A stretch of DNA of 8,479 nt from an uncultured Pseudomonadota bacterium (lineage in GTDB: Bacteria; Desulfobacterota_B; Binatia; UBA9968): positions 1 to 8,479 of the forward strand of contig CAMLCX010000192.1 of assembly GCA_946478635.1 (NCBI GenBank), in the 5' to 3' direction. The notes under the pieces are model-generated. The model was given only the letters and a program-made list of their open reading frames with translations. It was not told where the DNA came from and searched no databases. Made by a program: the position numbers and the translations under genes. This document shows positions 6,445 through 8,479 of the stretch, piece by piece (the first letter of the stretch is position 1; each line of letters opens with the position of its first letter).

Positions 6445-6513
6445 AAGGTATTTTATGCTGGCGGGCTCATGTCCTATGGAGCGGCCCCCGCGGACAGCTA
6501 CCGGCGCGGGCGT
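6445..6513 (+). pseudogene. ABC_sub_bind relic A: short C-terminal fragment
   Basis: Reading from 6445 gives KVFYAGGLMSYGAAPADSYR, the well-conserved C-terminal block of ABC_sub_bind periplasmic binding proteins (typically EAGGLMSYG, then D-S/L-Y-R-R-A). A TAG follows at 6514. Reading one base out of phase continues with the family-like A-G-V, which suggests a small deletion at about 6507. Nothing before 6445 or after 6513 continues the family. The sequence between the hydratase stop and this fragment (6351-6444) shows no gene or structure that I can support. Confidence 0.6.
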
Positions 6514-6612
6514 TAGATCCTCTTGTCGGTTTTTCGCGTAAATGAAAAGCATGTAAATGACTTCGCCTCCGCGCTGCCAATAATAGATCAATCTTGTCCC
6601 ACGGGACTTTCC
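6508..6612 (-). pseudogene. RelE/HigB-family toxin relic, antisense fragment
   Basis: On the - strand this block reads GKSRGTRLIYYWQRGGEV and then IYMLFIYAKNRQEDLTP, 35 residues in all. That is the core of small RelE-type mRNA-interferase toxins, which typically have G-G-x-R-V-I-Y-Y-W, then a hydrophobic strand, then Y-A-K-N-x-x-x-D-L-T. The N-terminal helices and the C-terminal tail are missing: the flanks on both sides are ABC_sub_bind coding sequence of the opposite strand. There is no start codon, ribosome binding site or antitoxin next to it, so it is a remnant. Assignment rests on the motif alone. Confidence 0.6.
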
Positions 6613-7104
6613 AACGTTGCGCCGGAGATAGCCGGAAAACAGCTCGAGCTTCTGAAGGAGATCATTCCCAAGCTCTCCCGTGTGGCCGTCCTGGGGACCT
6701 TTGGGAACAATCCCGGTAACGCCCAACAGCTAAGAGAAATCGAACGCGCTGCCGAAGCATACAAGGTGAAGCTTCAATACCTAACGTACGAGGTCCCAGG
6801 GATATTGACACTGCATTCCAAGCCGCGACCAAGGGGCGTTGCCGATGCAGTCCTGGTGCAGCAGGGCCCTATCTTCAATTCTAATCGACCACAGTTTGTC
6901 AAACTCTCAGTAAAGAGCCGACTCCCAGCGATATATAGCCATTCCCAATACGTCATCGACGGTGGGCTTATGACCTACAGCGCGAACTTGCCCGACTTGG
7001 ACCGGCGCGCCGCTAAGTATGTTGACAAGATATTAAAGGGCGCTAAGCCCGCCGATCTGCCCGTGGAGCAACCAACGAAGTTCGAATTGATCATCAATCT
7101 GAAA
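6601..7104 (+). pseudogene. ABC_sub_bind relic B: 5'-truncated binding-protein gene
   Basis: An open frame runs from 6523 to 7170, but family similarity begins only at 6601 (TGLSNVAPEIAGKQLELLKE) and ends at 7104 (KFELIINLK). The N-terminal signal peptide and the first domain are absent. Recognisable blocks include IPKLSRVAVLG, VKSRLPAIYSHSQYVIDGGL, and YVDKILKGAKPADLP followed by VEQPTKFE. Between about 6801 and 6839 the family sequence (DIDTAFQAATKGR) lies in the next frame, so the open frame translates this stretch out of phase. A 1-nt loss near 6800 and a 1-nt gain near 6840 compensate. The first 26 codons of the open frame are antisense to the RelE relic. Functional members are secreted solute-binding subunits of ABC importers of uncertain substrate; this copy lacks a signal and is very likely dead. 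Confidence 0.8.
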
Positions 7105-7153
7105 GTAAGGCCCAAGGGGGCAAGGAATATGAAACTAACCAAGCCGAGATATA

Positions 7154-7498
7154 TCACAAGTTTAGAATGATGCGGATGCGGTTTTCCACCTCTTCCATCA
7201 TAGGATTTGGCAAGGAGCCAATCTCTTGGCGGAAAGACTCGTTAGACACAGCGATCACCTGGCCCAGCAGTAGATCGCTGTCGCGAGAAACTCCGCCTTG
7301 GCCCTTCTTGAGGTGAATCCGAAGAATTCCCGGATTTTCCACAAGCCGGGTCGTCGTCGGGATGACGATAGTCGACGGATACTCGGCCTCGTTGACGAGA
7401 TCGGATTGGAGCACCAGGCCAGGCCGAAGCTTTCCGGGCTTGGTTTTGATCCGAGGATTGAAGTCTATGATGTATAAGTGTCCCCTTTTGACGGGCAT
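7154..7498 (-). CDS. MazF/PemK-like endoribonuclease toxin
   Basis: A 114-residue protein of normal MazF length. In this family the toxin is a dimeric SH3-like-fold RNase that cuts mRNA at short specific sequences. The N-terminal KRGHLYIIDFNP strand and GKLRPGLVLQSD loop are diagnostic. Arg25 in LRPGLV and Thr48 in IVIPTTT fall at the same numbers as the catalytic Arg25 and Thr48 of Bacillus subtilis MazF. DLLLGQVIAVSNESFRQEIG also matches the family. It starts with ATG immediately after the antitoxin TAA with no gap, so the two should be translationally coupled. Its 3' end overlaps the converging open frame of relic B by 17 bp. It appears intact, with no truncation or frameshift, unlike everything around it. 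Confidence 0.92.
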   Translation of the reverse strand: MPVKRGHLYIIDFNPRIKTKPGKLRPGLVLQSDLVNEAEYPSTIVIPTTTRLVENPGILRIHLKKGQGGVSRDSDLLLGQVIAVSNESFRQEIGSLPNPMMEEVENRIRIILNL

Positions 7499-7741
7499 TT
7501 ACTCTTTCCCATCGGCCCGCGCGACACCGGCGTTGAAAAGCTCTCTGTTCTCCTCACGATCGGCCGCGCCGCAGCGACTCACAGAGTCCTGGATATCGCG
7601 GCGTAATTTTTCTTCCTGGCTTTTCTTTTCCAAAGTCCTTAACGCGGTGCGGATCAGTGCCGATTTGCTTGCGATTCCGAGATCCTTACGCAACCTTTCG
7701 ATTTGTTCTTCTTCCTTTTTGGAAACGGCTATTGCTCCCAT
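7499..7741 (-). CDS. Ribbon-helix-helix antitoxin paired with MazF-like toxin
   Basis: An 80-residue, strongly charged protein. Its first 40 or so residues fit a ribbon-helix-helix DNA-binding fold: a short strand AIAVSKK, a helix EEEQIERLRKDLG, then ASKSALIRTALRTLEKK with the S-K-S-A-L-I-R turn and second helix typical of CopG/ParD/MazE-type antitoxins. The acidic and arginine-rich tail (about 41-80) would wrap and inhibit the toxin. The start is ATG at 7741 with AAGGAG four nt upstream. The stop directly abuts the toxin start, the usual antitoxin-first order. By analogy with the family it should repress its own promoter, together with the toxin. The sequence does not resemble a classical AbrB-fold MazE. 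Confidence 0.85.
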   Translation of the reverse strand: MGAIAVSKKEEEQIERLRKDLGIASKSALIRTALRTLEKKSQEEKLRRDIQDSVSRCGAADREENRELFNAGVARADGKE

Positions 7742-7800
7742 AATGCTCCTTGTTAGAAGACTTATTAGATTATTTATAATGCAGCCGATGATTCAAGTCA
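7742..7800 (-). promoter_or_regulatory. Candidate promoter/operator of the toxin-antitoxin pair
   Basis: This stretch is markedly AT-rich in a GC-rich region. On the - strand it has TTGAAT (7791-7796) as a possible -35, followed by ATTATAAATAATCTAATAAG with overlapping TAAT/ATTA half-sites in the -10 area, then AAGGAG (7746-7751) before the antitoxin ATG. The ATTA/TAAT half-sites could be ribbon-helix-helix operator elements. No perfect -10 at ideal spacing stands out, so the exact promoter is uncertain. Confidence 0.4.
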
Positions 7801-7832
7801 AACTCATTAGCATCAGACCGCGTGTCCCCATC

Positions 7833-7895
7833 GTTGGGCTGCGACTCCCGGCAACAAAAAGTTTGTTAGCGAGAGCGGACAAGGTGATCCGATGA
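7833..7895 (+). pseudogene. Detached C-terminal tail of an ABC_sub_bind gene
   Basis: Twenty codons read VGLRLPATKSLLARADKVIR followed by TGA. This is the standard C-terminus of ABC_sub_bind proteins (normally ...K-x-x-G-L-T-I-P-x-S-x-L-x-R-A-D-x-V-I-x, stop). It picks up almost exactly where relic B stops matching the family (after N-L-K at 7104), missing only about five residues. The 728 bp between them carry the MazF pair. It is therefore best read as the displaced 3' end of relic B. Confidence 0.8.
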
Positions 7896-7900
7896 AGACA

Positions 7901-7985
7901 TGGAGTGATGGAGTGGTGGGGTCGTGGAGTGTTGGGTCAATTCGGCTGAGAGCATTACTCCAATACTCCAACATTCCAATTCCCC
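7901..7985. repeat. Inverted TGGAGT-type minisatellite upstream of binding-protein gene C
   Basis: The left arm (7901-7937) is a run of degenerate 8-9-bp units of the form TGGAGTGN (TGGAGTGA, TGGAGTGG, TGGGGTCG, TGGAGTGT). The right arm (about 7954-7985) carries the complement (ATTACTCCAATACTCC, then AACATTCC). The two arms could fold into an imperfect stem-loop around 7938-7953. It occupies the whole gap between the displaced tail and gene C, so no clear ribosome binding site for gene C is left. Confidence 0.6.
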
Positions 7986-7987
7986 GA

Positions 7988-8479
7988 TTGAGATTTTGTC
8001 TTACCCTTTGCGTCATGATCTTTGCGCTCTGCGCGGTCGCCCAGGCGCAGCAGACGAAGAAAGTCCCCCGGATAGGGTATCTAGTGGGGGGTGATCCAGC
8101 TACTGAGTCCACCCGTTCCGAGGCAATTCGGTTAGCTCTGCGCGAGCTTGGCTACATGGAAGGACAGAACATCGCCATCGAGTACCGATATGCGGAAGGG
8201 AAGGTCAGTCGGTACCCTGCGCTTGCGGCCGAGTTGGTGCGTCTCAAGGTTGATATTATCGTGGTAGCAGGCGGTCTCAGACCAATCCAGGCGGCCAAGA
8301 ATGCGACTAAGACGATTCCCATCGTCACTGGAAACATTTGTAAGGCCGGTGACGTTACCGCCGGGCCGGGCAAGGCTTTCCACCAGCCCTGCCCTGACAG
8401 GATCGAGCCCACCGCCCGTCATAACGGTAAGCGGCTGGAGCTGCTCAAAGAAGCGGTTCCCAAACTTGCCCGTGTCGCG
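7988..8479 (+). CDS. ABC_sub_bind periplasmic binding protein C, partial, with internal inverted block
   Basis: An open frame runs off the window (164 codons seen; the family is usually about 320-330 residues). From the TTG at 7988 it begins with a signal peptide (hydrophobic residues 3-18, cleavage likely after AQA at 18-20). Then come VPRIGYLVGG, ALRELGYMEGQNIAIEYRYA, LAAELVRLKVDIIVVAGG and ATKTIPIV, all standard for the first lobe of ABC_sub_bind proteins, the extracytoplasmic solute-capture subunits of ABC importers. Residues 114-145 then do not match the family at all, and from residue 146 it resumes with NGKRLELLKEAVPKLARVA. The mismatched block is an in-place inversion (8327-8422). The frame stays open through it, but the hinge-region block is replaced by antisense-coded residues, so the product is probably non-functional in this orientation. 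An ATG at 8015 is an alternative start but would shorten the signal peptide. Confidence 0.85.
   Translation, partial: MRFCLTLCVMIFALCAVAQAQQTKKVPRIGYLVGGDPATESTRSEAIRLALRELGYMEGQNIAIEYRYAEGKVSRYPALAAELVRLKVDIIVVAGGLRPIQAAKNATKTIPIVTGNICKAGDVTAGPGKAFHQPCPDRIEPTARHNGKRLELLKEAVPKLARVA
8327..8422 (-). other. 96-bp in-place inverted segment within gene C
   Basis: Read on the - strand, this block encodes MTGGGLDPVRAGLVES and then LARPGGNVTGLTNVSS, 32 residues. This is exactly the conserved ABC_sub_bind block that should follow IPIV and precede GKRLELLKE. Flipping 8327-8422 restores IPIV-MTGGG...NVSS-NGKRLELL in one frame with no gain or loss of bases. The two breakpoints share only a tiny imperfect inverted match (CGTCA at 8323-8327, and CGTTA as the complement of 8422-8426), so the true ends are ambiguous by about 3 bp on each side. 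Confidence 0.88.

What the first reader, a model, noticed from the sequence alone, without database searches (positions are those of the whole stretch)
8320..8430. In-place 96-bp inversion inside an ABC binding-protein gene, open in both orientations
The + strand protein matches ABC_sub_bind up to IPIV and again from GKRLELLKE, but 32 residues between are foreign. The - strand of that same stretch encodes precisely the missing conserved block (TGGGLDPVRAG, LARPGGNVTGL). Flipping it gives a perfect family sequence in frame. The block is 32 codons exactly, and neither orientation contains a stop in the gene frame. It could be a reversible switch in the solute-binding lobe of a multi-copy paralog family, or a one-off microinversion mediated by the CGTCA/CGTTA microhomology or template switching. 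The lack of long inverted repeats favours the second.
Basis: partly seen in the sequence, partly recalled or inferred. Interest (0 to 1): 0.85.

Follow-up and report, generated by a model that had tools for sequence, protein, structure and literature searches.

The report
Small flipped segment inside transporter gene
A stretch of about 100 bases inside one copy of a common bacterial transporter gene is turned around in place, most likely by a single recent copying or repair accident and not by a built-in genetic switch.

Summary
The inversion is in the letters. In ORF 7892-8479 (+), an ABC_sub_bind gene cut by the window's end, about 100 bp (best 8325-8424) are reverse-complemented in place. 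Of 69 distinct gene copies read from related MAGs, 56 match the block on the opposite strand, 13 give no block match, 0 match in the window's orientation. Flipped, the block keeps 18 of 19 conserved columns; as it stands, 0 of 19. Two corrections. The flip does not give a perfect family sequence: the flanks lie 99 bp apart against 105 in 51 and 102 in 14 of 69 copies, so two codons seem lost at the right junction. And being open both ways is ordinary: 30 of 51 normal copies would stay open if inverted alike. Lost bases, only a 3-bp inverted repeat at the ends, no recombinase among the ten ORFs tested and no second case among the candidates scored in 292 related genomes speak against a reversible switch and for a recent one-off microinversion. 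Without reads an artefact stays possible. The window ends 55 bases after the right breakpoint, which hints at an assembly-graph branch. New member of a known kind; modest interest.

The parts
7892..8479 (+). ABC_sub_bind (PF04392) solute-binding-protein gene, its 5' part, open at the window's end
   Evidence: ORF; PF04392, 30.5 bits against cut-off 25.9
8325..8424 (-). inverted block (100 bp; equivalent limits 8324-8425 and 8323-8426); its - strand encodes the conserved MTGGGLDPVRAGLVESLARPGGNVTGLTNVSSD
   Evidence: opposite-strand match in 56 of 69 normal copies, same-strand in 0, no match in 13
8323..8326 (.). left junction; the left flank matches relatives up to 8325, the inverted part starts at 8325 or 8326 (1 bp, T, shared)
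8424..8427 (.). right junction; the inverted part matches relatives' antisense through 8426, the right flank matches from 8425 (2 bp, CG, shared); 6 bp (mostly ACTAGG or GCTAGG in normal copies) missing here
8425..8479 (+). right flank, 55 bases to the end of the window; conserved among copies (55 of 55 in L032, 54 in L165)
8132..8479 (-). antisense open frame that happens to contain the block; probably not a gene of its own
   Evidence: PF04392 19.7 bits, below the cut-off

Best explanation
A real, recent, one-off microinversion in one copy of a large ABC_sub_bind family, in a bacterium whose nearest held relatives are MAGs labelled Deltaproteobacteria. About 100 bp were copied or rejoined in reverse orientation in place, with loss of 6 bp at the right junction, using 1 bp (T) and 2 bp (CG) of shared sequence. 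Most likely route (inferred): a two-step template switch or microhomology-mediated repair at a stalled or broken replication fork; end joining of two breaks is the alternative route to the same product. Shown: orientation, spacing, junction letters. Inferred: that the DNA molecule exists in cells, that the 6 bp went in the same event, the route, and the effect (probably loss of function of this copy, tolerated because of many paralogs).
For: Block on the opposite strand in 56 of 69 normal copies, in the window's orientation in 0, no match in 13. Spacing 99 bp against 105 (51 of 69), 102 (14 of 69) and 64, 104, 108, 111 (one each), so the event does not look conservative. The flipped block keeps 18 of 19 columns conserved at 90% or more, as it stands 0 of 19; its divergence from the family is not raised (rank 30 of 52 by block-minus-left-flank identity: 0.043 against a mean of 0.081, SD 0.103), so it looks recent. 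No inverted repeat of 8 nt or more brackets the block. No second case: 201 candidate proteins, none at E <= 10; in 292 related genomes, of which 20 match, no match over the whole chimeric stretch above 35.3 bits (at most 21 candidates per genome scored, list cut). The gene next to the matching enoyl-CoA hydratase in G005 (C96) has the normal order. In the fetched loci no exact word of 20 or more bases joins the two sides of either junction, so a false join by shared k-mers of 21 or more is unlikely.
Against: One sequence only, 55 bases from the window's end; no reads, no second isolate, no genome held. The 6-bp loss could predate the inversion, though none of 69 copies shows it. Lack of decay also fits an artefact. 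A 3-bp inverted repeat is the shortest reported for human-chimpanzee microinversions (PMC8755829) and may be chance. A 20-nt, 70% complementary inverted repeat (8256-8275 and 8411-8430) overlaps the right junction, but its left arm ends about 50 bases before the left one. Same-strand alignments that run through the block exist at low identity (for example G005:C96, 70-77%), carried by the flanks; the block-only query is what gives 0. Structure prediction did not help.
Confidence: 0.62

Rival explanations
1. Artefact: chimeric library molecules or a misassembly near a contig end produced the inverted stretch; the cell's gene is normal.
For: The block lies 55-154 bases from the window's end; [quoted passage not shown] No decay of the block.
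Against: Two junctions with at most 3 bp in common are needed within 100 bp, where library chimeras usually have one (recalled). In the fetched loci no exact word of 20 or more bases joins the two sides of either junction (longest 17 and 19); the loci are relatives, not the sample.
Confidence: 0.22
2. Templated insertion: the stretch was replaced by a reverse copy of another paralog's block, not of the gene's own block.
For: Paralogs abound (32, 32, 50 and 96 matches in G001, G002, G004, G005; only 1 in G003).
Against: L047 is the best match of the left flank (88%) and ties for best of the block (91%), which fits one origin for both; but the gene's own former block is unknown.
Confidence: 0.1
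3. Reversible intragenic switch (inverton) that gives the protein two alternative forms.
For: Frame kept in both orders; large paralog family in which variation could be useful.
Against: 6 bp missing, so flipping back would not restore the family sequence; only a 3-bp inverted repeat; no recombinase among the ten ORFs tested; the present order keeps 0 of 19 conserved columns; not seen in 69 copies or among the scored candidates of 292 genomes; openness both ways is common (30 of 51).
Confidence: 0.03
4. Same product by another route, a sub-case of the best explanation: two breaks rejoined by non-homologous end joining.
For: Ku (PF02735) over the cut-off in 3 of 10 related genomes; a small loss at one junction.
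Against: No Ku match in 7 of 10 (completeness of these genomes is not told); two breaks 100 bp apart are needed.
Confidence: 0.2

Closest known systems
Microinversions between human and chimpanzee (PMC8755829; passages read)
   Same: Short stretch reverse-complemented in place; short inverted repeats at the ends (3-75 nt there, 3 bp here); template switch or microhomology-mediated repair proposed.
   Different: Those are 17-33 nt and mostly pure; this one is about 100 bp, bacterial, in a coding sequence, with 6 bp missing.
Template-switch events in yeast genes (PMC8604942; abstract and outline) and the four-point model (PMC7954356; passages)
   Same: Local polymerase switching that changes several codons in one event; the window can be written as such a path.
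   Different: The yeast events were sought at perfect inverted repeats and change up to five neighbouring residues; here about 33 residues and almost no repeat.
Intragenic invertons (Chanin et al., Nature 2024; seen only as a reference in PMC11868660; features recalled)
   Same: A segment inside a gene in the opposite orientation, recoding the protein.
   Different: Those rest on inverted repeats and reversible recombination; here bases are missing and no such repeats were found.
ABC_sub_bind family PF04392; solved relatives 3lkv, 3lft, 6hni (a fourth, weak hit, 4osz, left out as likely chance)
   Same: The flanks and the flipped block are typical of the family.
   Different: The block as it stands matches no member found here.

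Membership tests
ABC_sub_bind (PF04392) gene | Pfam score over the curated cut-off | tested here: met
   30.5 bits against 25.9
ABC_sub_bind (PF04392) gene | conserved residues between IPIV and GKRLELL | tested here: not met
   0 of 19 as it stands; 18 of 19 after flipping
Site-specific inverton / intragenic inverton | inverted repeats bracketing the segment | tested here: not met
   only CGT/ACG, 3 bp, at the ends; none of the five repeats (8-20 nt) brackets the block
Site-specific inverton / intragenic inverton | conservative exchange, no bases lost | tested here: not met
   99 bp between the flanks against 105 or 102 in 65 of 69 copies; an older 6-bp loss is not excluded
Site-specific inverton / intragenic inverton | recombinase close by | tested here: inconclusive
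   none among ten ORFs of the window; beyond the window unknown
Site-specific inverton / intragenic inverton | both orientations in one population | not testable with these tools
   no reads held
Microinversion | segment is the reverse complement of its normal state, in place | tested here: met
Microinversion | short inverted repeats or shared bases at the ends | tested here: inconclusive
   1 bp and 2 bp shared; a 3-bp inverted repeat in the present state; could be chance

The most novel reading that the evidence does not exclude
Large families of solute-binding proteins in this lineage may be remodelled by in-place microinversions that, because the block's antisense frame is often open, can keep the reading frame and create some 30 new residues in one step; this copy would be an example caught before decay.
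Probability: 0.07. Interest if true: 0.6.

Novelty: new member of a known kind. Interest (0 to 1): 0.3.

Why it matters
If reads confirm it, this is a clean bacterial example of a microinversion of about 100 bp in a coding sequence, with the former order readable from dozens of relatives, and it shows how such events hide as 'foreign' protein stretches. It is also a warning: a frame kept in both orders is common here (30 of 51 copies) and is no sign of a switch. In the held library, the searches listed no paper that, by title or shown abstract, reports microinversions inside bacterial genes; of those listed I looked into PMC2483231 (passages: it only cites mammalian microinversions) and PMC5372343 (passages: inversions between bacterial core genomes). 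The lists were cut, and many subscription papers are not held.

Tried and rejected
Looked for the window's own genome: none held. Looked for other proteins with the foreign block: 201 candidates, none at E <= 10. Looked for a second inversion by tblastn: the only antisense overlap at E <= 1e-8 among 122 merged ABC intervals of 60 fetched regions plus the window is the window's own, and the two in-place antisense hits at E <= 5 are also in the window; this test is weak for diverged copies. Tested for decay of the block: none seen. Structure prediction: block pLDDT about 36-40 in the window's protein but about 39-47 in the normal homolog P0002, so it says nothing about misfolding. Ku in relatives: 3 of 10, not decisive. 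Considered a diversity-generating retroelement and a shufflon: no fitting repeats, no such enzyme among the ten ORFs tested. Left out: copies whose left match does not reach the breakpoint, spacings outside 60-170 bp, three loci of an N-masked copy (L130, L152, L158) and copies with an identical inner sequence. An earlier count without proper removal of duplicates gave 57 of 70. A paper search on Binatia and ABC binding proteins gave nothing of use.

Full report
What is in the sequence. The window's last gene starts at 7892 (+) and runs off the end at 8479. It scores as ABC_sub_bind (PF04392, 30.5 bits, cut-off 25.9). Between IPIV and GKRLELL the + strand reads TGNICKAGDVTAGPGKAFHQPCPDRIEPTARHN (with the V codon before it shared), which matches no homolog found. 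The - strand of the same stretch reads MTGGGLDPVRAGLVESLARPGGNVTGLTNVSSD, the kind of block seen in the homologs that cover the place (12 homologs aligned; P0112 stops before it and P0001 is cut within it). tblastn with family proteins puts this block on the - strand with E from 1.8e-14 to 2.6e-10.

Relatives. No whole genome is held for the window. A scan with the window's 800-residue CoA-transferase found six loci in MAGs labelled Deltaproteobacteria (five) or Syntrophobacter (one), at 79-86% identity; one protein hit is named Candidatus Binatia (P0062). These genomes hold 32, 32, 1, 50 and 96 matches to the gene (G001 to G005). In them and in further relatives the flanks match on one strand and the block on the other, up to 91% (G005:C133) and 92% (G009:C138). 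In G005 the gene next to the matching enoyl-CoA hydratase (C96) has the normal order, with 108 bp between the flanks.

Counts. From all loci fetched by then I took copies with both flanks (left match reaching the breakpoint, spacing 60-170 bp), one per distinct inner sequence: 69 copies, after dropping three loci of an N-masked copy. With a block-only query the block matches on the strand opposite to the window's in 56, gives no match in 13 and matches on the same strand in 0. The spacing is 105 bp in 51, 102 in 14, and 64, 104, 108 and 111 in one each; the window's 99 occurs in none. Paralogs and orthologs are not separated. Longer queries can align through the block on the same strand at low identity, carried by the flanks (G005:C96).

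Junctions. Normal copies begin the inner stretch with T in 46 of 51 (mostly TATG, 43 of 51) and have GA, then most often ACTAGG or GCTAGG, before CGGTAAG or CGGGAAG. The window reads ATCG-TCACTGG...GTCATAA-CGGTAAG. The simplest account is an inversion of 8325-8424 (100 bp) and loss of the 6 bp before CGG. The left junction shares 1 bp (T), the right one 2 bp (CG: the block matches relatives' antisense through 8426, the right flank matches from 8425). The flipped gene is thus a good but not a perfect family member: it lacks two codons. That the loss belongs to the same event is inferred.

Is 'open both ways' telling? No. Simulated in the 51 normal copies of 105-bp spacing, the same inversion and loss leave 30 open (L077, one of the 51, has a stop already in its normal order). 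A first, smaller trial gave 14 of 24.

Age. After flipping, 18 of 19 columns conserved at 90% or more are kept; as it stands, 0 of 19. The flipped block is not unusually diverged: block-minus-left-flank mean identity is 0.043, against a mean of 0.081 (SD 0.103) for the 51 others, rank 30 of 52. So the event is recent on the scale of the family's divergence, or not real.

Elsewhere. A protein search with residues 141-186 gave 201 candidates, none at E <= 10. A six-frame search with the 61-residue chimeric stretch in 292 relatives gave matches in 20. The best, up to 47.6 bits, cover only the middle and lie on the strand opposite to a gene match at the same place where I looked (G010:C171, G005:C133); matches over the whole stretch reach 35.3 bits (at most 21 candidates scored per genome, list cut). 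A gene with the same inversion should score well above that (inference). A DNA search in 97 relatives gave 19 with a match (up to 8 candidates scored per genome).

Mechanism. A site-specific switch should be conservative, bracketed by repeats and recurrent; none of this is seen, and none of the ten ORFs tested is a recombinase. Two near-blunt junctions with 1-2 bp in common and a small loss fit a two-step template switch or microhomology-mediated repair, as proposed for microinversions in apes (PMC8755829, passages), for template switching in yeast genes (PMC8604942, abstract) and in the four-point model (PMC7954356, passages). End joining is an alternative: Ku in 3 of 10 relatives. The route is inferred, not shown.

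Artefact or real? The window ends 55 bases after the right breakpoint, counted from 8425, the first base that matches normal copies. 55 is one of the k values commonly given to SPAdes (21, 33, 55, 77, 99, 127 in PMC8172020, passages; that metaSPAdes by default stops at 55, and that a de Bruijn contig ends with the whole k-mer of a branching node, is recalled). A branch at the 55-mer 8425-8479 is what one expects if a normal copy with the same right flank enters there. The right flank is conserved enough: L032, from another genome, is identical over 55 of 55 bases, while over the left 55 bases the best copy reaches 46. This rests on two things not shown, that the window's end is a contig end and that such an assembler was used; it could be chance. 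If right, the sample also holds a normal copy (paralog or strain), and the left flank led on into the inverted order. A false join by shared words is unlikely, because in the fetched loci no exact word of 20 or more bases joins the two sides of either junction (longest 17 at the left; 19 at the right, an antisense run that ends in the shared CG). A chimeric molecule remains possible. I give artefact 0.22.

Effect. The block is conserved in a solved relative too (3lkv alignment), so its replacement should spoil this copy (inference). Predicted structures do not decide it: the block scores low in the window's protein and also in a normal homolog. With many paralogs in most of these genomes the loss would hardly matter.

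Verdict. A real-looking, recent, one-off microinversion with a 6-bp loss in one copy of a large family; not a switch. New member of a known kind; interest 0.3, to be raised if reads show both orders or if such inversions prove frequent in this family.

Noticed in passing
7105-7892: A PemK/MazF-like gene (7154-7498, -) and an RHH antitoxin-like gene (7499-7741, -) seem to sit inside another ABC_sub_bind gene: its body ends at about 7105 and a tail-like piece lies at about 7833-7892 (weak: tblastn E 0.13-0.66; DNA matches of 20-27 bases). In relatives the two pieces lie 41-64 bp apart in the 11 rows shown of 95. No direct repeat of 7 bp or more was found between the two ends.
   Followed up: partly
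6457-7107: Remnants of ABC_sub_bind genes: a C-terminal crumb at 6457-6507 (82-88% over 17 residues) and a copy that matches only from about 6601 (GLSNV..GKQLELLKE), near the family position where the inverted block of the next gene ends.
   Followed up: partly
7892-7990: The ORF's leader (MKTWSDGVVGSWSVGSIRLRALLQYSNIPI) looks repeat-like at DNA level and has close counterparts in P0002, P0003, P0004 and P0112; the DNA was not compared.
   Followed up: no
P0001 and P0041: Two relatives look like fusions of two N-terminal parts of ABC_sub_bind genes, another sign of rearrangement in the family.
   Followed up: no
L050 (G002:C112): A copy with only 64 bp between the flanks, that is, a deletion in the same block.
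   Followed up: no
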